Positions 989 through 31,327 of a DNA stretch of 64,000 bases are shown here, piece by piece. Source of the stretch: Procambarus clarkii (taxonomy: Eukaryota; Arthropoda; Malacostraca; Decapoda; Cambaridae); NCBI RefSeq assembly GCF_040958095.1, contig NC_091228.1, positions 6,001,700-6,065,699 on the forward strand, read 5' to 3'. Each line of letters opens with the position of its first letter. Position 1 is the stretch's first letter. The notes below the pieces were generated by a model. The model did no database searches. It saw nothing but the letters and a program-made list of their open reading frames with translations, and had not been told where the DNA came from. The position numbers were made by a program, and so were the translations under genes.

Positions 989-1189
989 GTTGACCAGACC
1001 ACACACTAGAAGGTGAAGGGACGACGACGTTTCGGTCCGTCCTGGACCATTCTCAAGTCGATTGTGAGTCGATTCACAATCGACTTGAGAATAGTCCAGG
1101 ACGGACCGAAACGTCGTCGTCCCTTCACCTTCTAGTGTGTGGTCTGGTCAACATACTTTAGCCACGTTATTGTGACTCCTCGCCTGCAC
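989..1189 (+). mobile_element. FB-C hairpin-plus-tail element, copy 1
   Basis: A long near-perfect palindrome from GTTGACCAGACC to GGTCTGGTCAAC, followed on the right only by a tail of about 35 bp ending CGCCTGCAC. It is flanked by the identical 12-bp direct repeat AGGTACCCATTT (977-988 and 1190-1201). The interrupted host sequence is itself related to SINE family 2, so the pre-insertion site can be recognised. No protein is encoded. Confidence 0.85.
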
Positions 1190-1402
1190 AGGTACCCATT
1201 TTACTGTTGGATGAACAGAGGCTACAGTTAAGGCTTGGCGCCCAGTCAATCCTTCTCCTTTTCTCTCTTCTTAGGTTCCCGAAAGTAAATCCCCTATTTT
1301 CTACCTTATTACTTCCAATATTCCTCCTATTCTCCTTCACTCGTGGAGTGTCTCGAGGGATGGCATCTTCCCATCACTTACCACGAGTACCCAAGAGACC
1401 TA

Positions 1403-1662
1403 GGGCCAGATTCACGAAAGCCCTTACGCAAGCACTTACGAACGTGTACATCTTTCCTCAATCTTTGACGGCTTTGGTTACATTTATTAAACAGTTTACA
1501 AGCGTGAAAACCTCCCAATCAACTGTTGTTATTGTTATAAACAGCCTCCTGGTGCTTCGGAGCTCATTAACTGTTTAATAATTGTAAACAAAGCCGCAAA
1601 AGATTGAGAAAAGATGGACAGGTTAGTAAGTGCTCGCGTAAGTGCTTTCGTGAATCTGGGCC
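1403..1662. mobile_element. FB-A inverted-repeat element, copy 1
   Basis: Terminal arms begin with GGGCCAGATTCACGAAAG and end with its reverse complement. The interior contains the conserved stretch around AACTGTTGTTATTGTTATAA. There are six copies in the window. No coding capacity; MITE-like. Confidence 0.8.
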
Positions 1663-1800
1663 CGAGTCAGTACCCACTCGGTATACTGTAGCGGCATTGT
1701 ATACCATAGTATACCCCACTCTACACAATAGTCCAAAATTATCTCCCCATTAGGTTTTGACATTTTTCTACAAAGAGTCCCCAAACACGAGCCCCATTTC

Positions 1801-2365
1801 TATTCCCATTCTCTTATCCCTTTTACTCAGCCCCATTCTCTTACCCCCTTTATTCAGCCCCATTCTCTTACCCCCTTTACTCAGCCCCATTCTCTTACCC
1901 CCCTTTATTCAGCCCCATTCTCTTACCCCCCTTTATTCAGCCCCATTCTCTTACCCCCCTTTATTCAGCCCCATTCTCTTACCCCCTTTATTCAGCCCCA
2001 TTCTCTTACCCCCCTTTATTCAGCCCCATTCTCTTACCCCCTTTACTCAGCCCCATTCTCTTACCCCCCTTTATTCAGCCCCATTCTCTTACCCCCTTTA
2101 CTCAGCCCCATTCTCTTACCCCCTTTACTCAGCCCCATTCTCTTACCCCCTTTACTCAGCCCCATTCTCTTACCCCCCTTTATTCAGCCCCATTCTCTTA
2201 CCCCCTTTACTCAGGCCCATTCTCTTACCCCCCCCTTTATTCAGCCCCATTCTCTTACCCCCTTTACTCAGCCCCATTCTCTTACCCCCCCTTTATTCAG
2301 CCCCATTCTCTTACCCCCTTTACTCAGCCCCATTCTCTTACCCCCTTTACTCAGCCCCATTCATC
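1801..2365. repeat. pyrimidine-rich minisatellite ending in CAG, 26-28 bp unit
   Basis: About 21 copies of a unit with core CCATTCTCTTACCCCCTTTA, each ending in TTCAG or CTCAG. Every unit therefore looks like a 3' splice site (pyrimidine tract plus CAG). The array runs straight into the likely true acceptor (CAG at 2371-2373) of the first coding exon of the receptor gene. Confidence 0.95.
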
Positions 2366-2390
2366 TATTCCAGGAGTGCCTCTAGCCGCC

Positions 2391-2497
2391 ATGGAGACCC
2401 TCAGGTCGTCTGCAGACTACCCCGACTATCCTCATTTCTTCAACGACAGCTGGGACGAGCCCCCTTGGGACGAGGCGGCCGAGTCAGAGATTGCCAA
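2391..2497 (+). CDS. Tre1-like: receptor coding exon 1 (start codon)
   Basis: ATG at 2391 in context GCCGCCATGG, after a likely acceptor at 2371-2373. It encodes an acidic extracellular N-terminus rich in Asp, Glu, Tyr and Trp, with the sequon NDS. The donor AA|GTGGGT at 2498 is weak but gives the phase needed to join exon 2 just before MSRGVAR. An alternative in-frame pairing uses the stronger donor CAAG|GTATGA (2536) with a TAG acceptor at 6321-6323; it would insert 25 residues including a hydrophobic stretch. Confidence 0.75.
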
Positions 2498-5400
2498 GTG
2501 GGTGATGAGGTGGTTACTGGTGATTGTTGTGCAAGGTATGAGTAGTGTAGTCGTGCACGGTAGTTTGTCCTCGCTCAAGGTGGTAGTGTAGTCGTGCACG
2601 GTAGTTTGTCCTCGATCAAGGTGGTAGTGTAGTCGAGCACGGTAGTTTGTCCTCGCTCAAGGTGGTAGTGTAGTCGAGCACGGTAGTTTGTCCTCGCTCA
2701 AGGTGGTAGTGTAGTCGAGCACGGTAGTTTGTCCTCGCTCAAGGTGGTAGTGTAGTCGAGCACGGTAGTTTGTCCTCGCTCAAGGTGGTAGTGTAGTCGA
2801 GCACGGTAGTTTGTCCTCGATCAAGGTGGTAGTGTAGTCGAGCACGGTAGTTTGTCCTCGCTCAAGGTGGTAGTGTAGTCGAGCACGGTAGTTTGTCCTC
2901 GATCAAGGTGGTAGTGTAGTCGAGCACGGTAGTTTGTCCTCGCTCAAGGTGGTAGTGTAGTCGAGCACGGTAGTTTGTCCTCGCTCAAGGTGGTAGTGTA
3001 GTCGAGCACGGTAGTTTGTCCTCGCTCAAGGTGGTAGTGTAGTCGAGCACGGTAGTTTGTCCTCGCTCAAGGTGGTAGTGTAGTCGAGCACGGTAGTTTG
3101 TCCTCGCTCAAGGTGGTAGTGTAGTCGAGCACGGTAGTTTGTCCTCGATCAAGGTGGTAGTGTAGTCGAGCAAGGTCGCTTCAGTAAGATTCTGCCCTAT
3201 GTGTTTAACAATTTCTTCTGTGTTGATGGATCTAAGTTGAATTCTTAATGGCTTTGTAACTGCTGTCTTAGATGATGTTCCAGTGGTCTGTTGGGCATGT
3301 CTTCCCAGTGGTGACATTGGTAGTGTGGTCGTCGTTCAAGGCAGTAGTTACATCGTGTAAGCAACCCATTCTCGATCGTCTTGCAAAGTTAATTAAAAAT
3401 TCCTGGGGTAGTCTTAGTCAGCTAGTTTGAAGTAGGTGATATTTCTTGCTCATCTTGTCAAACATTGTAATGGAATTAGGCCCCCCAGATCCTTATGTGT
3501 AAACACTCAGGACTCTACTCCTTGATATGGTTGGGAGTGTTGGCTGTGTAAACACTCAGGACTCTACTCCTTGATATGGTTGGGAGTGTTGGCTGTGTAA
3601 ACACTCAGGACTCTACTCCTTGATATGGTTGGGAGTGTTGGCTGTGTAAACACTCAGGACTCTACTCCTTGATATGGTTGGGAGTGTTGGCTGTGTAAAC
3701 ACTCAGGACTCTACTCCTTGATATGGTTGGGAGTGTTGGCTGTGTAAACACTCAGGACTCTACTCCTTGATATGGTTGGGAGTGTTGGCTGTGTAAACAC
3801 TCAGGACTCTACTCCTTGATATGGTTGGGAGTGTTGGCTGTGTAAACACTCAGGACTCTACTCCTTGATATGGTTGGGAGTGTTGGCTGTGTAAACACTC
3901 AGGACTCTACTCCTTGATATGGTTGGGAGTGTTGGCTGTGTAAACACTCAGGACTCTACTCCTTGATATGGTTGGGAGTGTTGGCTGTGTAAACACTCAG
4001 GACTCTACTCCTTGATATGGTTGGGAGTGTTGGCTGTGTAAACACTCAGGACTCTACTCCTTGATATGGTTGGGAGTGTTGGCTGTGTAAACACTCAGGA
4101 CTCTACTCCTTGATATGGTTGGGAGTGTTGGCTGTGTAAACACTCAGGACTCTACTCCTTGATATGGTTGGGAGTGTTGGCTGTGTAAACACTCAGGACT
4201 CTACTCCTTGATATGGTTGGGAGTGTTGGCTGTGTAAACACTCAGGACTCTACTCCTTGATATGGTTGGGAGTGTTGGCTGTGTAAACACTCAGGACTCT
4301 ACTCCTTGATATGGTTGGGAGTGTTGGCTGTGTAAACACTCAGGACTCTACTCCTTGATATGGTTGGGAGTGTTGGCTGTGTAAACATTCGTTAAAGAAA
4401 GAGGACTATCCAGGGGGGTAGAAATAGCCTAAGCTACTCTAACCCTTTGAGATGTATTTATTGTTTATCTCAATAAACATACTTGAACTTGAGTACTATC
4501 CAAGTCGAACAATGTTTCTTGCCTCATTGCTTGATATAGCTAATGGAGAAGACAGGATAGTGGCAGCTTCTTGAGATTATCTTGAGATTATCTTGAGTTG
4601 ATTTCGGGGCTTTAGTGTCCCCGCGGCCCGGTCCTCGACCAGGCCTCCACCCCCCAGGAAGCAGCCCGTGACAGCTGACTAACACCCAGGTACCTATTTT
4701 ACTGCTAGGTAACAGGGGCATAGGGTGAAAGAACCTCTGCCCATCGTTTCTCGCAGGCGCCCGGGATCGAACCCGGGACCACAGGATCATGTGTCCAGCG
4801 TGCTGTCCGCTCGGCTGGCCTTATAGTCAATATTGGCTTATTTAATAAGCCAATATTGGCTTATTGCTTATAGTCAATATTGGCTTATTTAATAAGTACA
4901 TATGTGACATACTAATTGATTGTAAATATTTTAGTTTACCTTGAAAAGCTTCATAGAAAACACCGACCTCACCTAACCTTCTTAGTATGTTAAGATAAGC
5001 ATCTTATTGCTTCTTATTTACAATTATTACTTAATCTATACCGTTGATAGGTTAAGTAATAATAGTCACATATGCACTTATTAAATAAGCCAATATTGAC
5101 TATAAGCAAGGGCGAGAACGGGTTGCATCACCAATGTTGCCGTGCGATGTAGTGTTGTATTTGTCGTGTAGTGAAGTAGTGTTGTATTTGTCGTGTAGTG
5201 AAGTAGTGTTGTATTTGTCGTGTAGTGAAGTAGTGTTGTATTTGTCGTGTAGTGAAGTAGTGTTGTATTTGTCGTGTAGTGAAGTAGTGTTGTATTTGTC
5301 GTGTAGTGTAGTAGTGTTGTATTTGTCGTGTAGTGTAGTAGTGTTGTATTTGTCGTGTAGTGTAGTAGTGTTGTCATGGACTGTAGTCAGATTGTCGTGC

Positions 5401-8400
5401 AAGTTGAACGTATTGTCGTACAGTGATGTAGCGTTATCGTGCGATACAGTAGTGTCTAATACAGTAATCTTGTGGTCGTATACAGTATTGTTGTGAAATA
5501 TGATATAAGTATGGCGGTCTTGTCAACTACCCATAGCTCCAACCTTCCCCTGAGACTCTCATCCTTTCCCTGAGACTCTCATCCTTCCCCTGAGACTCTC
5601 ATCCTTCCTCTGAGACTCTCACCCTTCCCTGAGACCCTCCATCCCACCCCTGAGACCCTCATCCTTCCCCTGAGACCTCCCATCCCTCACCTGAGACTCT
5701 CATCCTTCCCCTGAGACTCTCATCCCTCCCCTGAGACCCTCATCCCTCCCCTGAGACTCTCATCCCTCCCCTGAGACCCTCATCCTTCCCCTGAGACTCT
5801 CATCCCTCCCCTGAGACCCTCATCCCTCCCCTGAGACTCTCATCCCTCCCCTGAGACCCTCATCCTTCCCCTGAGACTCTCATCCCTCCCCTGAGACCCT
5901 CATCCCTCCCCTGAGACCCTCATCCCTCCCCTGAGACCCTCCATCCCACCCCTGAGACCCCCATCCCTCCCCTGAGACCCTCATCCTTCCCCTGAGACCC
6001 TCATCCCTCCCCTGAGACCCTCATCCTTCCCCTGAGACTCTCATCCCTCCCCTGAGACCCTCATCCTTCCCCTGAGACTCTCATCCTTCCCCTGAGACTC
6101 TCATCCTTCCCCTGAGACTCTCATCCCTCCCCTGAGACTCTCATCCCTCCCCTGAGACCCTCCATCCCTCCCCTGAGACCCCCATCCCTACCCTGAGACC
6201 TCTCATCCCTCCCCTGAGACCCCCATCCCTCCCCTGAGACCTCCATCCCTCCCCTGAGACCCTCAACCCTCCCCTAAGACCCCCAACCCTCCCCAGACAC
6301 TCCCCCATCCCTCCCTCCCCTAGTGGCCTCCCCAGCAACGCCCTCTCCCTCCCCCCGCAGGATGTCGCGGGGCGTGGCCAGGGTCATCGCTGTGCTCTTC
6401 ATAGGCTACATGGTGTTGGGGCTGACTGGCAACTTCCTCACTATCCTGGCCCTCCTGCGCTGTCCTCGGGTCAGGAACGTCACCGCTGCTTTCATTATCA
6501 GGTAAGGCTGAGGGTAGTCTTGTTCTCAGGTAGTCACGGGTCACTTCGGGTAGTCACTGGTCCCTGTGACTACCTGAAGGACCTGTGTTCAAACACATTG
6601 CATCCCATTGTCACCAAAGGCTCACCTCACTTGCTGGAACACCATGAATGTTTTCAAAATGAAATTGACAAATATATATATATATATCCCTACAGGAAGT
6701 ACCAGATTACTGTCTCTCACGGGCTCACCATAGCCCGTGCTACTTGGAACTTTGTTCCAAGTAGCGAATCTTTAACAACAACAACAAACTGTGTCTCTCA
6801 CTTGAGTTACCTAGAGCATACCAGGTATGCTATAGATAGTTATACTTCTACATCTCTCCTCCTCGTCTCCAGCTAGCTAACGAGAGCGTTTGTGCCTTGC
6901 AGTCTGTGTGTGGCCGACTTCCTGTTCTGCGTGTTAGTACTGCCTTGGGAGGTGTCAAGATTCCTTGCTGGCAAGTGGGTCTGGGGAGAAGGCTGGATCT
7001 GCACCCTTTTCCCGCTTCTCAGGTCAGTTGCCTTCCTTACTCTGCCTCAACCTCCTACTACTACTACTACTTCCCCAACCCGTTCTCGCACTTTCTTATA
7101 GTCAATATTGACTTATTAAATACGTGCATATGTGACATACTTAACATGCTAGTTTATTGTTGACCAGACCACACACTAGAAGTTGAAGGGACGACGACGT
7201 TTCGATGGGTAAATCGAATCGACTTGAGAATGGTCCAGGACGGACCGAAACGTCGTCGTCCCTTCACCTTCTAGTGTGGTCTGGTCAACTATTACTACTA
7301 AAAACAATGATAATAGTATTAAGAGTGATAACCTGAGGGTCAATAATGTGTGTATATGGCGATCCCACAGGTACTGGAACGTTGCCGTCTCTCTACTGTC
7401 CATCGCCATGATCACTATCAACAGGTAGGTCAAACACCTGTCTGTCTGCCTGTCTTCCTGTCCCCCCCCCCCCCCCACTCTCACACCTGTCCTAACTCTC
7501 ACACACCTGTCATCTGCCTATATCATGGGCACGTAACTATTTTCTACATCATATAACTTATACAATAATTATTGGTTCGTTAATCCCCTGAAAATTTCGT
7601 TGAATAATAATAAAAATAATAAGAAAATTCAATAAGAAATGTGAAGAAAAATAATAAGTAATTGTAATGTCTTATTACAGACAAAATAACATAATTACAT
7701 AAGAAGTATTAAAAAGTACTATGTACTAGTATTACTAAAGTACTATGTACTTTATGTAAAGGTTTGAACTACACCAAAAGTCCTCCACCCTCTCTTGAAC
7801 TTCCATCTGGTCTTAAGTCTTACAAAGTCTTTTTACAAAGACTTATACACCTCGTAAGTCCAAACTCTATATATTGATACCTTGATAATGTACTCAAAAG
7901 TGCTGACTTTTCGTATAGTTCAAAAATCTTGATACAAAATACACAAATGCATTAGTTTTTTATCCTAAATGAAGATGATAATACTTGTACTAATGGGTAA
8001 CATCCACTAGGGCTGTGAGGTAGGTTCGAACCTTAAACCTAGGCATGGCCAGTAGATCACTGAAACTTCTAAAGTCATACAATCGGATTTACCTATAGTC
8101 GTAGTGGATTTACCTATAGTCGCAGTGGAGTTACCTATAGTCGCAGTGGAGTTACCTATAGTCGTAGTGGATTTACCTATAGTCGCAGTGGATTTACCTA
8201 TAGTCGCAGTGGATTTACCTATAGTCGCAGTGGAGTTACCTATAGTCGTAGTGGATTTACCTATAGTCGAAGTGGATTTACCTATAGTCGTAGTGGATTT
8301 ATCTATCGTCGTAGTGGATTTATCTAAGGTTGTAGTGGATTTTCTCCTTTGATATATATTAAGTTAATGTGATTTTTGTGTGTACTAGTATTAAATATAT

Positions 8401-11400
8401 TAATTAACAAACCTCCCCCCCCCCCTCTCTCTCTCTCTCTGCCTACAGAAAGGTAATGATTGGGTGCTTTAATAATAATTATATAGGTATCTTCAGTCTA
8501 TTGAGCTACGTATATATTTTCTTCTTTCTGAGTACGATTGCTTGACCGGATGGTCGTTTGACCCGGTGTGCGCTGCGTTCGCATGACCCGGTGTGCGCTG
8601 CGTTCGCATGACCCGGTGTGCGCTGCGTTCGCTTGACCCGGTGTTCTCTGTGTTCGCTTGATCCGGTGTTCTCTGTGTTCGCTTGGCCAGTGTTCGCTTG
8701 ATCCGGTGTTCGCTGCGTTCGCTTGACCCGGTGTTTGCTGCGTTCGTTTGACCCGGTGTTCGCTGTGTTCGCTTGACCCGGTGTTTGCTGTGTTCGCATG
8801 ACCCGGTGTTCGCTGCGTTCGCTTGACCCGGTGTTTGCTGCGTTCGTTTGACCCGGTGTTCGCTGTGTTCGCTTGACCCGGTGTTTGCTGTGTTCGCATG
8901 ACCCGGTGTTCGCTGCGTTCGCTTGACCCGGTAATCACCTAACCCAGTGACCTTATAACGCCCTACAATCACCTCTCACTTTCACGAACGAGGCAATTTC
9001 GACACCCTTAACAACCAAAATACGCTCAATACCACGGTACACATTTTAACCAAAGGCTGGCGACCGCCAAAAAAGTACAAAAGTGTAGCTCTAGCTTGTA
9101 AACTACAAGGTAAACTCGAACTAGTTCATGTACAACATTTATGACAAAAAAACCTTTCGTCCCCTGTACAGGTACATCATGATAGCCCACTTCAGCGTGT
9201 ACAAACTGGTGTACAGGAAGGGTTGGATCGCCCTTATGATCGCCTTCTGCTGGGTCTTCGCCTTCGTCATGCTTCTCCCTACCCTTCTCAGCAAGTGGGG
9301 TACGTACCCTAAGCCCCAGGTACGTCTTGGGTACACTGTGGCATGTTAGAAGAGGTTATGGTGCACTCTGGTACATTTTAGAGGAGTGGTGTTACGCTGG
9401 GATGGAGGGGAGGGGGGTTACAGGGTACTACGGTACATGGGGTTGAGATCGTGGTACACTATGGTACTTTAAAAAAGCGGTTGTGGTTTGCTGACGTTTA
9501 CTAGGAAGGCCAATGATAGCTTGTACCTTTGATGTGGTACTAAAAGTACCTCTAAAAGTATTCATGGTACGCCGGGGGGTGTCCTCGCGGTACAATGCTG
9601 TGTCCTGACGGTACACTGGTGCGTTCTGGCGGTACACTGGTGTACCTATTGAACGGTGTATATTAATTACAAACACACTATCGACATACAGCTCCACACC
9701 TCCACCAGAACCACACCACACCAGCACCACACACTACCACCAGCACCATACACCACCACACACTACCACTAAGCCCAACCGCTACCATCTTCACCTCGCA
9801 GGACGCTTTGGCTTGGACCGACGGCTACAGACCTGTTCAATCCTGGACGACAGCAACAAGTCGCCCAAGCAGGTGCTCTTCGGGTTGGGCTTCTGTGTTC
9901 CCGCCATCGTCATCGTCATCTGCTACTCCCTGATATTCTTCGTCATCCACAAGTAGGTCCAGCTTCGGGAAGGGGCCTCTAATAATTCAATCCTCTATTG
10001 AAGATTTAGATAATTCTGGCCGGGGAGGATTTACTGGGCGCAAATCCTTAACTGTAGCCTCTGTTTAACTCAACAGTAAAATGTGTACTTGGATGAAAAA
10101 ACGATTCTTCGCGGCAGGGGATCGTATTCCAGGGTCTTGCCCGAAACGCTACGCGTACTAGTGGCTGTACAAGAATGTAACAACTCTTGTATATATCTCA
10201 AAAAAATAATCTTCATTTACATTATCGATGCCAACACCCATATCCCGTTGAATTTAATAACTTAGAATAATGCTATATATGTTCGATGTGGACTTCGAGT
10301 CGGACGAAGAGGACCTTCGAAGTCAGACTCCTTCGGGAAGGGGACGAAGGTCCTATTCGTCCGACTCGAAGTCCACATCGAGTTATAGCACATAGCATTA
10401 TTCTAAGTTATCAAACTCAACGGGATATGGGTGTTGGCATCGAGGAATGTTGTAATCTAAGTCTATAATTTATATATATTTATATACTAAATAGAGTAAC
10501 CGGCGCTGCCCGGGGTTCACCCTAAAGAATTGCACCAATTCAGTGTTTGGAGCCCAATAGATAACTGGCGACGTGTCCGGTAAAAACGGGACACATAAGG
10601 TGTTTTATGTAAGCCTAGAGGTCATTTAAATAATCCTAAAAATCACTTAAGTAAGTCTACAGTCACTTAAAATACCTAAGCGGCTTCTATATCGACGTCC
10701 GTTCAGATTAATTTAAGTTAATGATCTTAATATAAGTCGCTATGCATGTTGACAGAAAATGGATGTGGAAGATTTGTTAGGACTGACTATGACATTTTGG
10801 TCTCCCAGGTCTGAGAAGCGGATGCGTCAGCACAGCACCCGAGGCATGAACGGGGCGGCGCCCCCCTCCGGACCTACCCTCCAGCCACAGTCCAGAGTCA
10901 CCACCAAGGTTAGAACCCCACCACAGGCAGCTGATAAGGGGGAAAAACCGATTTGTCATTTGTTTTTTTAACTGCATTAAAAACAGAATGTCCGGCAGGC
11001 GTGTCATGTAATGACTCCCAACCTCATTGATCCTTGTTATATCTGTTCTTAAATCTATGCTATCTCCCCTTCTAATTCATCACTGAGCTACGACATGGAA
11101 AAAGAATTGCAACCGGGAAATCATCCTGATTTACCACGGTTCCTGCAGCCTCTCAGAGACACAAACCAGGGACCAGATTCACGAAAGTACTTAAGCAAGC
11201 ACTTACGAACCTGTCCATCTTTTCTCAATCTTTGGCGGCTTTGTTTACAATTATTAAACAGTTAATGAGCTCCGAAGCACCAGGAGGCTGTTTATAACAA
11301 TAACAACAGTTGATTGGCAAGTTTTCATGCTTGTAAACTGTTTAATAAATGTAACCAAAGCCGTCAAAGATTGAGGAAAGATGTACACGTTCGTAAGTGC

Positions 11401-13820: not shown

Positions 13821-15417
13821 AGTTGAGAGGCGGGACCAAAGAGCAAGAGCTCAACCCCCGCAAGCATAACTAGGTGAGTAAGACAGCTTTATGCCGGAAG
13901 ATCCCACAGCAGAGCCTTCCCCGAAGCCTGGCCAGAAACCGGGCCGCGAAGGACCCTGAACCCCGGAACCACCGCAAGGTAACGGAGTCAGTGCGTTATT
14001 ACCACCATTAATAACGGTAATATTACCATTACCACCGCGGGAACAACGATATGGCCAACGTTTCTCAGTATGTCGTCAGCACTTACGTACTTGCTGACCA
14101 GACCACACACTAGAAGTTGAAAGGACGACGACGTTTCGGTCCGTCCTGGACCATTCTCAAGTCGATCACACAATCGACTTGAGAATGGTCCAGGACGGAC
14201 CGAAACGTCGTCGTCCTTTCATCTTCTAGTGTGTGGTCTGGTCAACATACTTCAGCCACGTTATTGTGACTCATCGCCTGCTTACATACTTGCACCTAAT
14301 TGAAATTGAAATTGGAATAAGTTTATTGAGGTAAAATACACACAAAGGGATGAGGTAGCTCAAGCTATTCTCACCCCGTTCAGTACATCGTGTTAATACA
14401 TACACACACACACATCACAAACAATAAACATATTACCAAACATTCCGAGAGATAAACATATACATTTCCACCTTTACACAAGTAGTATGGTATCAGACGT
14501 ACACACAAATACTTTTATGACCGAGGTATACTGTATAGACAATTTGCAAGACACCTGCAGATAATTCAACAAAATATTACAGTCTTGGTAGAGGCCAAGA
14601 TGGGAGCCGGTCGGCCGAGCGGACAGCACGTTGGACTTGTGATCCTGTGGTCCTGGGTTCGATCCCAGGCGCCGGCGAGAAACATTGGGCAGAGTTTCTT
14701 TCACCCTATGCCCCTGTTACCTAGCAGTAAAATAGGTACCTGGGTGTTAGTCAGCTGTCACGGGCTGCTTCCTGGGGGGTGGAGGCCTGGTCGATGACCG
14801 GGCCGCGGGGACACTAAAGCCCCGAAATCATCTCAAGATAACCTCAAGATTGGTGCAAAATTCTTATATCTCTCTGTATCTAATTGGCTGGCATTGGCTG
14901 TTGCCGCTAGCGTGGGAATCAGGCCTTAGCCTTCGCCATATCATCCTCTTACCTTAGCACCACCTGAGCGCCTTACCCCAAGCCTACCTACCTCCCGCCA
15001 CCTATTACTTACCCCGCGACTCAAAGTCCATCTTAGAAAGCCGAGCGCTGAGAGGGATAAGCTGGCAAGGTCTCCTCTGCTCCGTCTGATGTTAATGGGA
15101 GCCGCTTGAACATGCTTCTAATCCTCGTTAATTGCCAACAAGCTTCTTGGTGTTGGATGTTTGTCTTGCTATAGGTCTCAGGGACCCGTCTGCCTCGCCA
15201 GGGGCCCTGAGAGAACTGACACATGGTCCCTGAGGTGCATGGAAGGTGTAATTACCTAAGTGTAGTTACAGGATGAGAGCTACACTCGTGGTGTCCCGTC
15301 TTCCCAGCACTCTTTGTCATATAACGCTTTGAAACTACTGACGGTCTTGGCCTCCACCACCTTCTCACTTAACTTTTTCCAACCGTCTACCACTCTGTTT
15401 TCGAAAGTGAATTTTCT

Positions 15418-20539: not shown

Positions 20540-20675
20540 CCCTCCACACACACACACACACACACACAAGTTAATCTGTGTGGTTACTTCAAGCAAAACA
20601 AGAAACAAACGCAACGACTTAATACAAGAAAATTAAGTAAATGCTAATTTACAAGAGAATATTGGTGGAAGACTT

Positions 20676-20848
20676 GCAGGCGATGAGCCACAATAACGTG
20701 GCTAAAGTATGTTGACCAGACCACACACTAGAAGGTGAAGGGACGACGACGACGTTTCGGTCCGTCCTGGACCATTCTCAAGTCGATTGTGAGAATGGTC
20801 CAGGACGGACCGAAACGTCGTCGTCCCTTCACCTTCTAGTGTATGGCT
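20676..20848 (-). mobile_element. FB-C hairpin-plus-tail element, copy 4
   Basis: Inverted orientation: the tail (GCAGGCGATGAGCCACAATA) is on the left. The right arm is clipped. Flanks GGTGGAAGACTT and TGGGGAAGACTT share their last nine bases. Confidence 0.8.
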
Positions 20849-21771
20849 TGGGGAAGACTTACCTTTAGCAACTGTGTGAAAGAAGAGAATTAGCAAAACA
20901 AAACAAAAAAAAATATCTTATCTGTCCAGCAAATATCAGTTGGAGAGCGAAAGATGCAATAGAGAGCTTCAACTTGTAATTTATATAATTTTCCTTTAGC
21001 TGTACTAACATTGTGTATATATCTATACCCATAAGAGAATGTCGGTCTGTATGTCCAAAGTTGGAGACGAGACGCTTTGGGCTAGGCTTCCCCAAATATT
21101 TGCAGGGGGAATGGTCTGCTGTATGGAACGGACATAGGCTGGTTGAGGTAGGTCTAAGTTAAATGCTTTAGGAAATATTAACAATTATAAACACCCTCCT
21201 ATAGGACGTTTTCATGGAGACTTTTTGGGGGGATTCAAGTGTGAAAAATACCATGTGATTGATGTGTTGTCATAATATAATTTATTAGATCCATATAGTT
21301 GTTTCAGTGGTTCTTAATAATATATTTTATGAGAGAAGGGGGAAGGGGAGATAGATGGATACATGAATATAGAGATGGATAGATGTATTGATAAATGGAT
21401 AGATGGATGAATAAATGGGTGCATAAATTGGATAGGCTGAGGAAAGATTGATATGGTAGAAAGATAGATGGACTGCAATCGTGATTATCTTCATATATAT
21501 CTGTTTTCAATTTTTCCACTCCTAACAATTGTATATTAAAAACATGTTTTCCAAACTCAGCAATGTATAGTTTTTCCTTGTGTTATACAGCATTGAGAAA
21601 TAATCGGCATATTTAGGGTTAGGTTAGATTTAAAATAAGTTTTGATTCAAATTAAACAAATCATTATCATGTAGGTTACATGAACGTTGTCATTCCATAG
21701 AAGAAAATATCTGAAAGATCTAATATAGGAAGAAAATTCAGCTAGATAAACATCTGTGGCTATTGCATATA

Positions 21772-21774
<3 letters not shown>

Positions 21775-21846: not shown

Positions 21847-21848
<2 letters not shown>

Positions 21849-22461: not shown

Positions 22462-23272
22462 GGGGCCAGATTCACGAAGCAGTTACGTCAGTACTTACGA
22501 ACCTGGGGCCAGATTCACGAAGCAGTTACGCAAGCACTTACGAACGTGTCAACCCGTTCTCGCAAATTTAATAAGTCAATATTGACTTATTAAATATGTG
22601 CATAGGTGACATACTTAACATAATAGATACCCTTAAAAAGATTCATAGAAAACACCGACCTTACCTAACCTACTTAGTATGTTAAGATAAGCAACTTATT
22701 GCTTCGTAATTACAATTATTACCTAACCTATAATAGGTATAGGTTAAGTAATAATTGTAATTACGAAGCAATAAGATGCTTATCTTAAGATACTAACAAG
22801 GTTAGGTAAGGTCGGTGTTTTCTATGAATCTTTTTAAGGCTATCTATTATGTTTAGTATATCACCTATGCACGTAGTTAATAAATCAATATTGACTTTAC
22901 GAATTTGCGAGAACGGGTTGGAACGTGTACATCTTTCTTCAATCTTTGACGGCTTTGGTTACATTTATTAAACAGTTTACAAGCATGAAAACTTGCCAAT
23001 CAACTGTTGTTATTGTTATAAACAGCCTCCTGGTGCTTCGGAGCTCATTAACTGTTTAATAATTGTAAACAAAGCCGCCAAAGATTGAGAAAAGATGGAC
23101 AGGTTCGTAAGTGCTAACGTACCTGCTTCGTCAATCTGGCCCCAGGTTCGTAAGTGCTGACGTAACTGCTTCGTGAATCTGGCCCCAGGTTCGTAAGTGC
23201 TGACGTAACTGCTTCGTGAATCTGGCCCCAGGTTCGTAAGTGCTGACGTAACTGCTTCGTGAATCTGGCCCC
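22462..23272. mobile_element. FB-A element, copy 4, split by an FB-B insertion
   Basis: Left arm from GGGGCCAGATTCACGAAGCA with two arm units; right arm with four 43-bp units ending CGTGAATCTGGCCCC. FB-B interrupts it at 22550-22920. Confidence 0.85.
22550..22920. mobile_element. FB-B foldback element, intact copy
   Basis: A 371-bp almost complete palindrome from CAACCCGTTCTCGCAAATT to its reverse complement, flanked by the 8-bp duplication GAACGTGT (22542-22549 and 22921-22928). Deleting it and one duplication restores the FB-A arm. An 8-bp duplication fits hAT-, P- or Merlin-type transposases. Confidence 0.9.
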
Positions 23273-23665: not shown

Positions 23666-24171
23666 TTTAAGTTTAAGGGTAAAATATGACCACATGGCAA
23701 TTAGTCCAAGTATATTAGTATTGCTATGTGGTTAAGTCCAAGTGATTAAGTCCAAGTGGTTAAGTCCAAGTGGTAATATGTTTGTAAAATTCGCCACAGC
23801 GTAGACAAAGTTGTATCAAAATTGTATCAAAGTTGTATTAAAGTGCACTTGCATATTTGCGATGCTGTGGTCTACACTGTGATATAAACTCTTGTGTATA
23901 ATAAATCTTATGATAGACCCTACATTCACGGCTATATTTCCATTTAGAAAGGCTATATGAGTGCGAGTCTACCAGTTACAGGTTTAGTTGAAGTGTCGTA
24001 GTTCGAATATATATTTGTGTTGCTCCTTGTTTTAATCTCCATTTCCCTTTGTCGGAATTAACCAATTTAGGTGTGAAAAATGAATCAGATGTAACCAAGA
24101 ACGTCAACGGGTGTGTTGACCCCATCGACACACTCATTAGGTTCACACACACACACACACACACAAAATGG

Positions 24172-24715
24172 CCTGGTGATCTGGTCGGCTGCTGGCCTGG
24201 CCTGGTATCCTGGTCGGCTGCTGGCCTGGCCTGGTATCCTGGTCGGCTGCTGGCCTCGCCTGGTATCCTGGTCGGCTGCTGGCCTCGCCTGGTATCCTGG
24301 TCGGCTGCTGGCCTCGCCTGGTATCCTGGTCGGCTGCTGGCCTCGCCTGGTATCCTGGTCGGATGCTGGCCTCGCCTGGTATCCTGGTCGGCTGCTGGCC
24401 TCGCCTGGTATCCTGGTCGGCTGCTGGCCTCGCCTGGTATCCTGGTCGGCTGCTGACCTCGCCTGGTATCCTGGTCGGCTGCTGGCCTCGCCTGGTATCC
24501 TGGTCGGCTGCTGGCCTCGCCTGGTATCCTGGTCGGCTGCTGGCCTCGCCTGGTATCCTGGTCGGCTGCTGGCCTGGCCTGGTATCCTGGTCGGCTGCTG
24601 GCCTCGCCTGGTATCCTGGTCGGCTGCTGGCCTCGCCTGGTATCCTGGTCGGCTGCTGGCCTCGCCTGGTATCCTGGTCGGCTGCTGGCCTCGCCTGGTA
24701 TCCTGGTCGGCTGAC
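24172..24715. repeat. minisatellite, 29-bp unit
   Basis: About 19 copies with core GGTATCCTGGTCGGCTGCTG. It has no stop codon in any of three frames on either strand, so it produces several long artefactual frames. Confidence 0.95.
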
Positions 24716-24748
24716 AGGACAGTAAATATGACCTCTTTCTTGTACGAC

Positions 24749-24750
<2 letters not shown>

Positions 24751-24779
<29 letters not shown>

Positions 24780-24995
24780 GAGATATATACAAGAGTTGTT
24801 ACATTCTTGTAGAGCCACTAGTACGCGTAGCGTTTCGGGCAAGTCCTTAATCCTATGGTCCCTGGAATACGATCCCCTGCCGCGAAGAATCGTTTTTTCA
24901 TCCAAGTACACATTTTACTGTTGCGTTAAACAGAGGCTACAGTTAAGGAATTGCGCCCAGTAAATCCTCCCCGGCCAGGATACGAACCCATGACA
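24751..24995 (-). mobile_element. SINE family 2, minus copy with poly-T
   Basis: Starts with a run of about 29 T (the poly-A tail on the minus strand), then GAGATATATACAAGAGTTGT to TTTGCGCCCAGT-like body and ATACGAACCCATGACATAGC (part of the tRNA-like head). Confidence 0.9.
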
Positions 24996-26130: not shown

Positions 26131-26232
<102 letters not shown>

Positions 26233-26514
26233 TCATCTGCTAAACAAACTAATTTGGTAATAGATAACATTAATACTACAAAACACACAAACCTTAAGAT
26301 ACCTTGAAGGTGTTACCAGTAAAGGCAATTGTGACTTTAATGCCAAGTGCAGCAACGATGCCTATTGTTGAGCCCCAGGAGTCCCTCAGGGTGACAAGCA
26401 CCGGCCCCCACACACACACACACAACACTGGGGAGCAAAACCAAACACTCGGCCCCCCCAAATTAAACGCAAAAGTTATTCGGTGGTCCCCGGCAGAGCA
26501 GATGCCAGCCGCCC

Positions 26515-26800
26515 ACCACGGCTGAGGGCCCACCAGGAGCCCATCACGGCTGAGGGCCCACCAGGAACCCATCACGGCTGAGGGGCCCACCAGGAACCCA
26601 TCACGGCTGAGGGCACACCAGGAGCCCATCACGGCTGAGGTCACACCAGGAGCCCACCACGGCTGAAGGCACACCTGGAGCCCCCCACGGCTGAGGGCCC
26701 ACTAGGAGCTCACCTCAGCTAAGGGCCCACCAGGGCTGAGGGTCCACCAGGAGCCCACCCCAGCTAAGGGCCCACCAGGAGCCCACCCAAGACCCACCAA
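26515..26800. repeat. minisatellite, about 27-bp unit
   Basis: About 10 degenerate copies with core CCACCAGGAGCCCATCACGG. Confidence 0.9.
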
Positions 26801-27616
26801 CTCCCTGCCCCTCCCGGCCAAGCCGCACGATGCCAGCCCTCATTGCCTTCACTGTAAACAAAAACATTTACCGCAGACTGTGGAAGAAGGATAAGAAAGC
26901 TCACTATAAATATATAAATCATGTATCCCGCAACCCCAACTCTCTCTCAACCTAACAGCGACATCTATTGACCGGAACCTCAACTACAGGAGAAACTGGC
27001 ACAGTAATATCACTGACTTTCTCGAATCAAAGTTGTCTGTATCTGAAATATCTGTCTTTTTTAAATAGTTTTGAAGATGCAGCATTAATGACAATATTTT
27101 CCCATTTTTATCTTGTTCTGGATACTATATAAATGTAAATATTAAACACATGATTCCATAATGTCGTGAAACAAATCAAATTACGAATCTCACGGGGTAA
27201 CTCTTTTATAACTAACGAAGACGAGATTATTTGTGGAATATTAAAGAAGATTGAGAGTACGGGAAGTGCTTATTTGTCCATCACATTCATATCCCGAGTG
27301 CTTACGACGGGGGGACAGGAAGCCCGTGGTTTGTCAAACGTCTCCCCATTTTACCGAGGACTCTCCATTTTATCCAACTCAGTTTTGAACTGTCCAGTAT
27401 GGAATGACAGTTGCCTAAAAGCCAGAGATCTGTTTACAGCTAGGTGAACAGCAGCATAAGGTGAAAGAAAACGTACCCAGACTTCCGCATCGCGCGTGTA
27501 GAATGCCTGCGCAGACCATTGCGCCTCGCTGCGCGATATTATGAAGAATTCAACGAGGATAATGAAAACTCATTTGTTTAAATGTGCTTCAAGTATATGA
27601 AAGCAACCAGTAGACT

Positions 27617-27818
27617 GCAGGCGATGAGTCACAATAACGTGGCTAAAGTATGTTGACCAGACCACGCACTAGAAGGTGAAGGGACGACGACGTTTCGGTC
27701 CGTCCTGGACCATTTTCATGTTGATTGTCGATTCAAACAAGACAATCGACTTGAGAATGGTCCAGGACGGACCGAAACGTCGTCGTCCCTTCACCGTCTA
27801 GTATGTGGTCTGGTCAAC
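27617..27818 (-). mobile_element. FB-C hairpin-plus-tail element, copy 5
   Basis: Tail on the left (GCAGGCGATGAGTCACAATA), hairpin on the right ending GGTCTGGTCAAC. Flanks AACCAGTAGACT (27605-27616) and AACCAATAGACT (27819-27830) form a 12-bp duplication with one difference. Confidence 0.85.
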
Positions 27819-27893
27819 AACCAATAGACTCTTTATAGGACGATATAATATACCCAGCAGATAAGAAGCCGTGAGGTTGCTCCCTGTGCCTGA

Positions 27894-27932
27894 TATATAA
27901 AGGTGGTATGAGGCTAAGGGTCCAGTCTCAGT
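27894..27932 (+). promoter_or_regulatory. TATA box and initiator of the small secreted-peptide gene
   Basis: TATATAAAGG starts at 27894. TCCAGTC puts a start-site A at 27924, 30 bp downstream, and TCAGT (27928-27932) is a second arthropod-type initiator. The spacing fits a focused TATA promoter. Confidence 0.65.
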
Positions 27933-27984
27933 GTGGTGTCAGCACTCATCACATCAGGGTCACTCTCTCTCTCGCACTACAAAA
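27924..27984 (+). other. non-coding exon 1 of the small secreted-peptide gene
   Basis: About 60 nt with no ATG, ending CTACAAAA before donor GTAAGA. Its last base is the A of the start codon, completed by TG of the next exon. Confidence 0.65.
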
Positions 27985-29830
27985 GTAAGATGTAATAATT
28001 TTCAATATTCTAGTTGCAGGGCACAAATGCCTTGATGAAGCCTGAGCATCAGGTCCGACACGAGCAAGACCCGCCCGTTTGAAGTTTTTTTTGAAGACCC
28101 TACAACCCATAGAATGGTCTTCTTCCAAGGGGACCATTCCATGGTCCAAGTACCGGTGATCTTAACCCATTAACAAACGCATAATCTCCCTACTATACGT
28201 ATATTTCGAAAAAAAATATATATGAGAAGGTAAAGGTAATCAATAATCTAGCTGAGAAAAAGTGATGATTCTTGTCACTTGACAGTGCTGAGGAAGCTGA
28301 CGCTGGTGGCTGTGCTGACGGCGGTGATGGCGGCGAAAGTAACGAAAAATGACCAAGCTGGAAATGTCCAAACTGTCAGTCACAGTGTACACATCGAGGG
28401 CACTGACACGTGAGTATCTTGGTTCCTGAGGCACCATGACCCCATCCAGGACACAGGTAGGTGAGTACAGCTGCCACTTACTCATCTTGAGTAAAGAATA
28501 GTGCATATCAGAGTCTGGAGCCTAATTCACGAATCAGTTACGCAAGCACTTACGAACGTGTACGTCTTTCTTCAATCTTATTAAACAGTTAACAAGCATG
28601 AAAACTTGCCAACCAACTGTTGGTATTGTTATAAACAGCCTCCTGGTGCTTCGGAGCTCATTAACTGTTTAATAATTGTAAACAAAGCCGCCAAGGATTG
28701 AGAAAAGATGGACAGGTTCGTAAGTGCTTGCGTAAGTGCTTCGTGAATCTGGCCCCCTGATCCTTTGGCTGCGATACTAAACCTCTACTCCAAGCCTGGC
28801 TTGCTGTGCGTAATAATCTACTCCAAGCCTGGCTTGCTGTGCGTAATAATCTACTCCAAGCCTGGCTTGCTGTGCGTAATAATCTACTCCAAGCCTAGCT
28901 TGCTGTGCGTAATAATCTACTCCAATCCTAGCTTGCTGTGCGTAATAATCTACTCCAAGACTAACTTGCTGTGCGTAATAATCTACTCCAAGCCTAGCTT
29001 GCTGTGCGTAATAATCTACTCCAAGCCTAGCTTGCTGTGCGTAATAATCTACTCCAAGACTAGCTTGCTGTGCATAATAATCTACTCCAAGCCTAGCTTG
29101 ATGTGCATAATAATCTACTCCAAGCCTAGCTTGCTGTGCGTAATAATCTACTCCAAGCCTAGCCTGTTATGCGTAATAATAATCTCTCGGACAAATTAAT
29201 CCCAGGTAATTTAAATTTAATCCCAAATTAATCCTCGGCGTCTCCACCAGGGTAACTAGGACCTGGAGGTAATCCTCGTGTTAAGGATTACATTAAGTAA
29301 CCTGTGGTGGCTGGCTATTGATATTGTTAATGAATTGTTAATTATAATTTTAAATAACATTCAGTTTTTCTCCTTTATCAATAATACCAATTTATCTTAC
29401 CAAACATTCTTTGTTGGTCTTCTTTTACCTCTTTGTTGCGTCAAAACATGGGTGAGTATAATGAGTATGAATAAATGTGAGTATAAACATCACGTGCGCT
29501 GAATCTAACTGTTCTCGCCTTAAGCCTAAACATTGAAATTGAAAATTGAAATAAGTTTATTGAGGTAAAATACACACAAAGGGATGAGGTAGTTCAAGCT
29601 ATTCTCACCCCGTTCAGTACATCGTGTTAATACATACATAGACACACATTACAAGCAATAAACGTATTACCAAACATTCTGAGAGATAAACACATACATT
29701 TCCTCCTTTACACAAGCCTAAACATCGTTTCTCTTTCAGGGATGAATCTAAAATGCCTGACGGTGAAGACAGCGATGTTACCATTAAATATAGCGTCAAA
29801 TCCGATAAAGTGAGCACTAGACAGCGCTAG
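27984..29830 (+). CDS. small secreted peptide, three-exon gene, 71 residues
   Basis: Coding parts: A at 27984, 28286-28409, 29740-29830. The ATG is split by intron 1 (A|TG). The product begins MLRKLTLVAVLTAVMAA, a clear signal peptide (n-region with Arg and Lys, hydrophobic core, small residues at the cleavage site), followed by about 54 mature residues that are acidic and polar, without Cys, ending KVSTRQR. The joins are A|TG (phase 1) and AC|G (phase 2) with GT-AG borders (GTGAGT donor; TCTCTTTCAG acceptor). The assembled start context ACAAAATG fits arthropod usage. Intron 2 holds an FB-A copy, a 33-bp minisatellite and a retroelement piece. No family recognised; a secreted hormone, cuticle, mineralisation or defence peptide are all possible. 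Confidence 0.7.
28286..28409 (+). CDS. secreted-peptide exon 2 (signal peptide)
   Basis: Acceptor CACTTGACAG|TG; donor GACAC|GTGAGT. Encodes residues 1-41 except the first base of the ATG. Confidence 0.7.
28517..28755. mobile_element. FB-A inverted-repeat element, copy 5
   Basis: Arms GGAGCCTAATTCACGAATCA and CGTGAATCTGGCCCC. The left inner arm has lost the TTGACGGCTTTGGTTAC block. In intron 2 of the secreted-peptide gene. Confidence 0.8.
28775..29185. repeat. minisatellite, 33-bp unit
   Basis: About 12.5 copies with core CCAAGCCTAGCTTGCTGTGC. The unit is a multiple of three and gives an artefactual open frame. In intron 2 of the secreted-peptide gene. Confidence 0.95.
29531..29716. mobile_element. 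retroelement fragment, copy 2 of 2
   Basis: Second copy of the block at 14286-14478. Its right end (CACAAG at about 29715) is only about 25 bp before the acceptor of exon 3 of the secreted-peptide gene. Confidence 0.75.
29740..29830 (+). CDS. secreted-peptide exon 3 (C-terminus and stop)
   Basis: Acceptor CTCTTTCAG|G. Encodes DESKMPDGEDSDVTIKYS and the basic end; TAG at 29828-29830. Confidence 0.7.
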
Positions 29831-29898
29831 AAGACGCCGTCAGTTACATCCAAGAACTTCATAATATAGAACATGAATAACATGTTCTCGTAGCACGT

Positions 29899-29904
29899 AA
29901 TAAA
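29899..29904 (+). terminator. polyadenylation signal AATAAA
   Basis: Lies 69 bp after the stop of the secreted-peptide gene, with a TGTGTCT-rich stretch about 25 bp further on as expected downstream of a cleavage site. Confidence 0.7.
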
Positions 29905-29931
29905 GATTATAATAAGTTCCTGAACAGATTA

Positions 29932-30103
29932 TGTGTCTCTGTAACTTCTGATTATGTGTCTCTGTAACCTCTGATTATGTGTCTCTGTAACCTCTGATTA
30001 TGTGTATCTGTAACCTCTGATTATGTGTCTCTGTAACCTCTGATTATGTGTCTCTGTAACCTCTGATTATGTGTCTCTGTAACCTCTGATTATGTGTCTC
30101 TGT
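29932..30103. repeat. minisatellite, 23-bp unit
   Basis: About 7.5 copies with core ATTATGTGTCTCTGTAACCT. It begins at the predicted mRNA 3' end and so duplicates its GT-rich downstream element. Confidence 0.95.
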
Positions 30104-30104
30104 A

Positions 30105-30420
30105 TATATATATATATTGGTAGCAGTCTTTCTTGTAAACATATGTTGTTGAATATGACCAAAAGGGTAAGATTCTAACACGAATCTTCTCAATATTTCT
30201 TACGTTTTCTTCACTGTCGAGGGTAATTGAAAAATTAACTCTCCAAAGTTCATTTTCACATTTTATTTATGGTCTGACGTCTAGAAGCGTTTCGCAAGAG
30301 ATCTCTTACATTTTCAAAAACACTTTTACATACTCTGTTTCATGCTTATATTCGTTTTTGGGTGAGGTGACAGGATATCAATGGGTAAAGAAAATTTTAC
30401 CTACTCGGAACACGAATCAA
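30105..30420 (-). mobile_element. Penelope-like element, solo 3' end
   Basis: After a short (TA)n it aligns with 39702-39960, the non-coding end of the Penelope-like element: TTGGTAGCAGTCTTTC, AATATGACC, ATTCTAACACGAAT, AGTTCATTTT, GGTCTGACG. No reverse-transcriptase frame follows. Confidence 0.8.
30272..30321 (-). ncRNA. hammerhead-like fold, copy 1
   Basis: On the minus strand: stem I GUUU/AGAC, internal loop UUGAAAAU, stem II GUAAGA/UCUUGC, then GAAA, a short stem III, and GUC before AGAC. The layout is that of a type I hammerhead, but the loop that should read CUGANGA is UUGAAAAU, so self-cleavage is doubtful. Confidence 0.45.
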
Positions 30421-30429
30421 TGAGTATAT

Positions 30430-31170
30430 TGCGTGTTTTCTCTTGCTTCTATTTATTGCTAGGTTAACAAGAGACATCGGGTGAAATTAAACTTGCCCAA
30501 TCATATCTGTCGTGTCCACTAATCGAACCGTGGAGTGAATCCCGATCACGGGTCGAAAACGTAGACCATTGAACTACAGGACACAACAGATTTCCGAGAC
30601 TACATGATATATGAGAGGGAAGTATAGTGACTTGTGCCGCATTTAATTGTTTAGTCTAACATTAATTGAAAAGAAACTGAGAATTATCATTTGTATTCAC
30701 ATTTGCATTCATCATTTGCTAGCTACTAAGACAAAAAATACTTGTATCCAACACAAGTTGGGTAATATTAAAATTGTCTTTTTACTTGTGCTCAATCATT
30801 GCTGAATTTCAAAATCCTGGCCGGTAAAATCGTCAGGATAAAATAAGGGGGTCCTTTGACAAGCCGCCGGCTTCCCGTCGTCGTCGAGGACACTAGGTAG
30901 TGGCCCTCATGGAAACTCAGGTAAATAAACAGTGGGGGAGGAAGCCACAAATGCTCCTGCCCGCCGACAGGAGCATTTCCTCCCTCAAGATTATGGCCGA
31001 CGGTGATTGGCTGCGCCACCCCCGGGGCAGCGCGCCTCCAGAAGAACGAACATCCCACACTATACTGGACAGATTCCAGAGGCTCATATACCTCCGAAGC
31101 CTAGGGGTCGTTTCTGCCTCTACCTCGTAAGACCTCAAACACATAAACCCACAGACCTACATAAACACCG
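30430..31170. other. spacer with short repeat remnants, no gene seen
   Basis: A block near 30845-30905 (GCCGCCGGCTTCCCGTCGTC) is the reverse complement of part of 33845-33905. No splice-bounded coding exon is evident. Confidence 0.35.
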
Positions 31171-31185
31171 AAGACCTCTGTTTAT

Positions 31186-31327
31186 GTTGACCAGACCTGG
31201 ACCATTCTCAAGTCGATTGTCGACTTGAGAATGGTCCAGGATGGACCGAAACGTCGTCGTCCCTTCACCTTCTAGTGTGTGGTCTGGTCAACATACTTCA
31301 GCCACGTTATTGTGACTCATCGCCTGC
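31186..31327 (+). mobile_element. FB-C hairpin-plus-tail element, copy 6
   Basis: Internally deleted left arm, complete right arm and tail ending CGCCTGC. Flanked by an exact 12-bp duplication ACCTCTGTTTAT (31174-31185 and 31328-31339). Confidence 0.85.

What the first reader, a model, noticed from the sequence alone, without database searches (positions are those of the whole stretch)
989..31327. FB-C: a hairpin element with a one-sided tail and a constant 11-12 bp target duplication
Six copies (989, 7159, 14093, 20676, 27617, 31186) share a long palindrome bounded by GTTGACCAGACC and its complement. Five also carry a tail of about 35 bp (CATACTTTAGCCACGTTATT...CGCCTGC) on one side only: right in 989, 14093 and 31186; left, inverted, in 20676 and 27617. 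So it is a directional element, not a symmetric MITE. Flanking duplications: AGGTACCCATTT (12, exact), CTTACRTACTT (11), GGTGGAAGACTT/TGGGGAAGACTT (12 with differences), AACCARTAGACT (12), ACCTCTGTTTAT (12, exact). At 989 the target is SINE-2-like sequence whose uninterrupted form is visible elsewhere (about 33512). A near-constant 12-bp stagger does not match the common cut-and-paste superfamilies I know (2-10 bp), and LINE-driven SINEs give variable lengths and A-rich tails, which are absent here.
Basis: partly seen in the sequence, partly recalled or inferred. Interest (0 to 1): 0.7.

Follow-up and report, generated by a model that had tools for sequence, protein, structure and literature searches.

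The report
Hairpin footprints of Penelope-like retrotransposons
The six hairpins are tiny insertion products of a Penelope-like jumping gene whose protein-coding copies lie elsewhere in the same genome with the same ends, and the fact that they carry an end tail on one side only gives a clue to how this poorly understood class of jumping genes inserts itself.

Summary
In detail: six hairpins, five with a one-sided ~35-nt tail, these five with target duplications. The duplication is not a constant 12 bp: in 39 independent two-armed copies it is detectable in 34 and spans 9-14 bp. This is no DNA transposon or LINE-driven SINE. Genomic copies with the same pLTR and tail carry the protein of a Penelope-like element (PLE): L017 has a 797-codon frame starting 2 nt after a tail relic, with a reverse transcriptase domain above Pfam's cut-off and a sub-threshold GIY-YIG match. 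FB-C arms are PLE pseudo-LTRs; the tail is the known PLE 'tail'. New regularities: 37 of 39 carry one full tail, one a partial tail, one none, none two (in 3 of the 37 the other end is truncated); in 64 of 74 hairpin arms the inner end lies at pLTR -2 to +10, none beyond -2; 23 of 23 readable turnarounds are distinct strings. Best reading: PLE protein nicks both strands about 12 bp apart, both ends prime copying of the RNA's 5' part from two adjacent start sites, both copies run off and are joined head to head. Identity is near certain; the mechanism is inferred.

The parts
976..988 (.). target duplication, left copy (CAGGTACCCATTT) of element 989
989..1187 (+). FB-C copy 1: inverted pLTR arm 989-1070, sense pLTR arm 1071-1152, tail 1153-1187
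1189..1201 (.). target duplication, right copy of element 989
7159..7289 (.). FB-C copy 2: two pLTR arms, the left one reaching inward only to pLTR position 31, no tail, no target duplication found
14082..14092 (.). target duplication, left copy of element 14093 (one difference between copies)
14093..14281 (+). FB-C copy 3: inverted arm, sense arm to 14246, tail 14247-14281
14281..14291 (.). target duplication, right copy of element 14093 (first base shared with the tail end)
20667..20675 (.). target duplication (exact part GGAAGACTT), left copy of element 20676
20676..20846 (-). FB-C copy 4: inverted tail 20676-20710, arm, second arm truncated at its outer end
20852..20860 (.). target duplication (exact part), right copy of element 20676
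27604..27616 (.). target duplication, left copy of element 27617 (one difference)
27617..27818 (-). FB-C copy 5: inverted tail 27617-27651, inverted arm, sense arm without tail
27818..27830 (.). target duplication, right copy of element 27617 (first base shared with element end)
31174..31185 (.). target duplication, left copy of element 31186
31186..31327 (+). FB-C copy 6: left arm internally deleted (12-bp end kept), sense arm to 31292, tail 31293-31327
31328..31339 (.). target duplication, right copy of element 31186

Best explanation
FB-C is a short non-autonomous insertion product of a Penelope-like retroelement (PLE). Each arm is the element's pseudo-LTR (pLTR) and the tail is the stretch between pLTR and ORF start, known in PLEs as the tail. 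The PLE protein (RT plus probable GIY-YIG endonuclease) cuts both strands of the target about 11-13 bp apart. Both target ends prime copying of the 5' part of PLE RNA, starting at one of two adjacent internal sites: after the tail or at the pLTR/tail border. With the first pLTR of the RNA as template, each copy runs off the RNA 5' end (pLTR position about -2) after about 79 or 114 nt. The two copies are joined head to head, often through short homologies, giving a hairpin with one tail and a target duplication. If copying starts on a downstream pLTR instead, the insert carries PLE coding sequence. Shown: shared ends and tail with PLE copies; RT domain; duplications; one-tail regularity; fixed inner limit; varied turnarounds. 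Inferred: priming from both strands, use of two start sites in one event, RNA 5' end at -2, the joining step, and that the GIY-YIG match is the endonuclease at work.
For: Same ends on PLE-coding copies: L009/L010 (2.4 kb, duplication TTTGAGTACTT), L018 (845 bp, endonuclease fragment, duplication of 13), L012 (about 2.3 kb, CCCCTGGTGAAG), L023 (about 0.67 kb, ATGTGAAATGAAG), L017 (797-codon frame starting 2 nt after a tail relic). Pfam RVT_1 E=7.7e-8 (32.7 bits, cut-off 29.6); GIY-YIG E=0.0013 (19.4 bits, cut-off 22.6). Duplication found in 34 of 39 two-armed copies, 2 of 2970 control pairs. One full tail in 37 of 39, partial in 1, none in 1, two in 0; P about 7e-11 for 38 or more of 39 if ends chose independently. 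Inner arm ends in the 37 hairpins lie at pLTR -2 to +10 in 64 of 74, none upstream, whereas 7 one-armed copies continue into PLE 3' UTR, all 7 tailed. Published in-vitro PLE work: two adjacent internal RT start sites that delimit the tail, cleavage and extension of both strands (PMC11167929, main text read).
Against: [quoted passage not shown] In 3 of the 37 one-tail copies (L038, L051, window 20676) the other end is truncated inside the pLTR, so it says nothing on the second start site. GIY-YIG lies below Pfam's cut-off. The best solved-structure matches of the protein are group II intron-like RTs (E=0.0011), telomerase only E=0.033. Of 7 one-armed PLE-bearing copies an upstream search found a clean duplication in 2 (L012, L023); L017 lies in a repeat; 4 gave none in the stretch held. 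Only 5 of 16 other one-armed copies have a duplication. No RNA 5' end was measured. Arms of one hairpin tend to share a subfamily triplet (20 of 28 against 13.6 expected), which snap-back of one copy would also give. No Rfam hammerhead; the arm folds no better than shuffles. The sample is one contig plus the window.
Confidence: 0.6

Rival explanations
1. PLE origin is right, but the hairpin forms by snap-back: one cDNA, started after the tail, reaches the RNA 5' end, folds back on itself and copies itself; synthesis or ligation stops at the pLTR/tail border, so only one arm carries the tail.
For: Palindromic bits at turnarounds; arms of a hairpin share a subfamily triplet in 20 of 28; self-priming, on an antisense template, was proposed for A. 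vaga Penelopes (PMC3846280).
Against: Copying back would be expected to run through the tail to the target, giving two tails; 0 of 39 have two. L057 has arms that differ by two bases of the triplet (AGG and AAT); 7 further copies differ by one base, which later mutation can explain. The tail-less end is at the border at which tail-less one-armed copies also end (pLTR 74-85), except in the 3 truncated copies.
Confidence: 0.27
2. The hairpin is a self-perpetuating family: an existing hairpin with one tail is transcribed and copied as a unit by PLE protein.
For: Would explain one tail and high copy number (15,272 exact 35-base arm matches).
Against: 23 of 23 readable turnarounds are different strings, about 20 structures when substitutions are ignored; arms differ in length from copy to copy. 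16 of 39 turnarounds were not readable by the script.
Confidence: 0.08
3. A foldback or MITE-type DNA transposon with an unusual 12-bp stagger.
For: Long inverted repeats and target duplications.
Against: Duplications vary from 9 to 14 bp; tail on one side; one-armed copies exist; same ends border RT-coding PLE copies.
Confidence: 0.02
4. A metazoan retrozyme (small hammerhead-ribozyme repeat that may use PLE protein).
For: The arm contains GGTCC-AGGAC-GGACC-GAAACGTC, which by eye resembles stem II and core of a PLE hammerhead (pattern recalled, not from a call).
Against: No Rfam hammerhead match; fold not better than shuffles; the inverted arrangement is not the tandem one described for retrozymes (PMC7229834, passages).
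Confidence: 0.03

Closest known systems
Penelope elements of the rotifer Adineta vaga (PMC3846280)
   Same: Inverted pLTRs head to head, optional 31-bp tail on one inverted pLTR, target duplications of 8, 9 and 10 bp in examples (none in others), palindromes at inverted junctions, solo pLTRs (passages and Discussion read)
   Different: There the inverted pLTR accompanies an ORF or captured DNA in a few copies; here two pLTRs alone form hairpins of 119-217 bp in the 37 examined, with one-tail rule and fixed inner limit, and the arm occurs thousands of times
Poseidon PAc of Anolis carolinensis (PMC11167929)
   Same: pLTR, tail delimited by two internal RT start sites, RT plus GIY-YIG protein, cuts and extends both strands (main text read)
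   Different: Its ORF begins in the hammerhead, upstream of the RT start sites; here the L017 frame begins just after the tail. In-vitro start sites did not differ by strand
Metazoan retrozymes (PMC7229834, passages)
   Same: Small non-autonomous repeats; said elsewhere to rely possibly on PLEs (PMC8969392, passage)
   Different: No recognised hammerhead here, inverted not tandem

Membership tests
Penelope-like elements (as the source of FB-C) | single ORF with a PLE/telomerase-like reverse transcriptase | tested here: inconclusive
   Reverse transcriptase shown: L017 frame of 797 codons, RVT_1 above cut-off. PLE type not shown by a tree: no reference PLE protein was compared; PDB matches are weak, best to group II intron-like RTs E=0.0011, telomerase E=0.033. 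PLE assignment rests on the combination with the other rows
Penelope-like elements (as the source of FB-C) | C-terminal GIY-YIG endonuclease | tested here: inconclusive
   PF01541 E=0.0013, 19.4 bits against cut-off 22.6, at residues 717-757 of 831; also sub-threshold in L012
Penelope-like elements (as the source of FB-C) | pLTR with optional 30-40 nt tail, inverted pLTRs | tested here: met
Penelope-like elements (as the source of FB-C) | short, variable target duplications | tested here: met
   9-14 bp, 34 of 39 two-armed copies; PLE-coding copies L009 11, L012 12, L018 13, L023 13, but none found for 4 of 7 one-armed PLE-bearing copies
Penelope-like elements (as the source of FB-C) | hammerhead ribozyme motif | tested here: inconclusive
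   no Rfam match; motif-like core by eye only, ACTTGAGA before the stem in 81 of 99 arms, duplicate loci included
MITE / DNA transposon | fixed-length target duplication and symmetric ends | tested here: not met
LINE-mobilised SINE | A-rich end | tested here: not met
   element ends and flanks printed show no A-rich end
LINE-mobilised SINE | Pol III promoter | tested here: inconclusive
   only an Rfam scan at gathering scores: one tRNA match in the window, 38998-39069, none in the hairpins; box A and B were not searched
Retrozyme | recognisable hammerhead, tandem arrangement | tested here: not met

The most novel reading that the evidence does not exclude
PLE insertion is built on a two-site, two-strand rule: one RNA, two adjacent internal start sites, one used for each nicked strand, so every two-armed insert has exactly one tail. 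FB-C hairpins are the genome-wide footprint of this reaction when it takes the RNA's 5'-proximal pLTR as template and runs off the 5' end; PLEs with coding sequence arise only when a downstream pLTR is the template.
Probability: 0.42. Interest if true: 0.75.

Novelty: new variant of a known kind. Interest (0 to 1): 0.5.

Why it matters
How Penelope-like elements integrate is still open: the in-vitro study that reports the first active PLE protein says later steps are yet to be validated (PMC11167929). Hairpins that record both insertion ends give a statistical footprint of the reaction: one tail per insert, a fixed template end, and a staggered cut of about 12 bp. With an arm that occurs thousands of times, this turns a mechanism question into a counting exercise in assembled genomes and a defined in-vitro test.

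Tried and rejected
Hammerhead search with Rfam on the window, one element and one arm: no hammerhead; the matches are mostly microRNA families with long hairpins, all below their gathering scores. RNA folds of arm, arm plus tail, and tail: not better than shuffles; the antisense tail z=-1.6, 14 of 200 shuffles as good. Six arm and tail strings searched as text in the literature library: 0 papers, which says little because most papers do not print sequences. Solo arms in an 18-bp minisatellite (L003-L008) were taken as one insertion amplified with its array and counted once. Rows dropped before the counts: 20 loci as the same place, the same flanks, or a minisatellite array (L002, L004-L008, L010, L014-L016, L033, L034, L041, L045-L047, L053, L063-L065; L045 also held one tailed one-armed copy), and L024, whose tail runs on into the ORF and so is no insertion end. 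After that no two of the 39 two-armed copies share flanks. How places were chosen: from the 100 listed I passed over minisatellite runs and second members of pairs (40 stretches); of 79 further elements that I counted in the list, 30 were fetched, the first 20 in order and then 7 with both arms listed plus 3 singles, chosen without sight of the tails. A first triplet-concordance script had a wrong pattern and gave n=0; one search replaces it. A genome search for tail positions, to count two-tail hairpins by coordinate, did not complete.
Full report
1. Checking the observation. The window holds six hairpins at the stated places. BLAST of one copy finds these six and no other in the window; apart from the target duplication itself, the only further hit is a 13-base one at 50735, in another repeat. 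Five have the tail on one side, 7159 has none. The palindrome at 989 has 83-nt arms, 98% complementary. Duplications flank the five tailed copies. The target of 989 is seen uninterrupted at 10026-10095, 24899-24968, 33039-33108 and 33490-33541 (52-70 bp, 86-90% identity across the junction); the other five copies gave no empty site in the sequence held at that point.

2. The genome. The window is part of a 4.03-Gb assembly. Which animal it is was not tested; that it is a decapod crustacean is my recollection of such repeats and of genome sizes. The 12-base end occurs 51,278 times, against 1,050 for the reversed control, but part of these are minisatellite units. The 35-base arm GTTGACC...GGGACG occurs 15,272 times, control 0.

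3. An autonomous relative. Among 20 stretches of 9.9 kb around listed places, L009 and L010 (same flanks, counted as one insertion) hold a 2.4-kb element. It begins with the inverted arm GTTGACC..., ends with the tail, and is flanked by TTTGAGTACTT; inside is an RT frame on the other strand. L018 is an 845-bp internally deleted form with inverted 3' UTR and pLTR, an endonuclease fragment and a 13-bp duplication. L012 is 5'-truncated, about 2.3 kb, with duplication CCCCTGGTGAAG; L023 is about 0.67 kb with ATGTGAAATGAAG. L017 has an open frame of 831 codons from stop to stop. Its ATG 2 nt after an 18-nt relic of the tail gives 797 codons; L024 shows the series pLTR-tail-ORF start. Pfam finds RVT_1 above its cut-off and GIY-YIG below it; the best solved structures by sequence are group II intron-like RTs (E=0.0011) and, weaker, telomerase (E=0.033). 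The order of parts, put together from several copies, is: pLTR, tail, ORF (RT, GIY-YIG), 3' UTR, pLTR, tail. In the two PLE-bearing two-armed copies (L009, L018) the tail sits on the inverted arm upstream of the coding part and the downstream pLTR has none, whereas the one-armed PLE-bearing copies have the tail downstream. I do not explain this difference; n is 2.

4. Numbers. I took all loci with a pLTR hit, dropped 20 as the same place or flanks or as a minisatellite array, and dropped L024. This leaves 37 hairpins (6 of them in the window) and 2 PLE-bearing two-armed copies, 39 in all. No two share flanks. Tails: 37 one full tail, 1 partial tail on one side (L013), 1 none (7159), 0 two. If each end chose freely with equal chance, 38 or more of 39 would have P about 7e-11. 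In 3 of the 37 (L038, L051, window 20676) the other end is truncated inside the pLTR; without them 34 of 36 have one full tail. Duplications: 34 of 39 score 7 or more, 2 of 2970 mismatched pairs do. Best-match lengths are 9 (3), 10 (2), 11 (4), 12 (5), 13 (11), 14 (9). With bases that may belong to the element ends left out, the range is 5-14, mean 10.7. Of 16 one-armed copies tested the same way, 5 have a duplication. In an upstream search of one-armed copies, of 7 that carry PLE 3' UTR, 2 gave a clean duplication (L012, L023), L017 lies in a repeated target, and L022, L025, L026 and L030 gave none in the stretch held. A+T is 64% in the duplications and 59% in their flanks, so target preference is weak at best.

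5. Inner ends. With a query that includes 120 bp of PLE 3' UTR, the arms of the 37 hairpins begin at pLTR -2 to +10 in 64 of 74 cases, deeper inside in 10, and never upstream of -2 (counted from its lists without L024). Seven one-armed copies (L012, L017, L022, L023, L025, L026, L030) run on upstream into the 3' UTR, and all seven end in the tail. Fourteen one-armed copies begin at -9 to +10, six tailed and eight not; a few others are shorter fragments. So there are two classes: copying stops at one point near the pLTR start, or it runs on through the element. The first is what a copy running off the 5' end of an RNA would look like. That an RNA starts there is inference.

6. Turnarounds. In 23 of 39 copies the script could read the stretch between the arms; all 23 strings differ, about 20 structures if single substitutions are ignored (the last number is my reading). 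The other 16 were not readable by that script. The hairpins therefore seem to have arisen many times over rather than by copying one hairpin. In 28 of 39 copies a three-base subfamily mark could be read in both arms: 20 of 28 agree, against 13.6 in shuffles, 3 of 20,000 shuffles as high. The seed pattern behind favours one mark, so this test is soft. Of the 8 that disagree, 7 differ by one base and L057 by two.

7. Mechanism. In vitro, a PLE protein starts reverse transcription at two adjacent sites inside its RNA. The stretch between them is the genomic tail, and both target strands are cut and extended (PMC11167929, main text read). Put together with sections 4-6: both target ends prime, one copy starts after the tail, the other at the pLTR border, both run off, and the two are joined. 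One RNA that offers each start site once would give exactly one tail. Against this, the same study saw no strand difference in start site. Snap-back, proposed in another form for A. vaga (PMC3846280), remains the main rival, but would be expected to copy the tail into both arms.

8. Known or new. Inverted pLTRs, a one-sided optional tail, short duplications and palindromic junctions are known for Penelope elements (PMC3846280; inverted pLTRs and 3' extensions also in PMC8969392, passages). Penelope elements were reported at a mean of 2.3% in Astacidea genomes (PMC10454600, passages). I found no description of a high-copy hairpin made of two pLTRs alone, nor of the one-tail rule, in the searches (listings, and the papers named here); the library lacks most subscription papers, and two central PLE papers were not held. 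I therefore call it a new variant of a known kind.

9. Ribozyme. The arm contains a core that by eye resembles the PLE hammerhead, with the two core bases recalled as C3 and G8 read as T and A, which could still pair. Rfam and folding give no support. I make no claim of activity.

Noticed in passing
window 40301-41584 (-): A second, distinct Penelope-like element: 428-codon open frame with RT motifs (37% identity to the FB-C helper over query residues 220-371) and a GIY-YIG-like end; Pfam RVT_1 27.5 bits and GIY-YIG 16.9 bits, both below cut-off.
   Followed up: partly
window 22544-22926 and 52881-53303: Another foldback family: arms of 189 and 209 nt, 5 nt apart, 91% and 89% complementary; the left flank of hairpin 7159 resembles it.
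   Followed up: no
window, many places, e.g. 59039-59700, 3349-4530, 24055-24837: The window is crowded with minisatellite arrays, units of about 9-49 bp among the 20 largest families shown.
   Followed up: no
L003-L008 around 1434-1547: A solo pLTR with tail sits in an 18-bp minisatellite and appears to have been amplified together with it.
   Followed up: partly
L045 1821-2392: A ~26-bp piece of the pLTR end has itself become a tandem array of about 20 units.
   Followed up: no
L009, L018 against L012, L017, L022, L023, L025, L026, L030: In two-armed PLE-bearing copies the tail is on the inverted upstream arm (2 of 2); in one-armed PLE-bearing copies it is at the downstream end (7 of 7).
   Followed up: no
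window 38998-39069 (+): A tRNA-like match (60.4 bits) to Rfam RF00005, not tested for being a gene or a SINE head.
   Followed up: no
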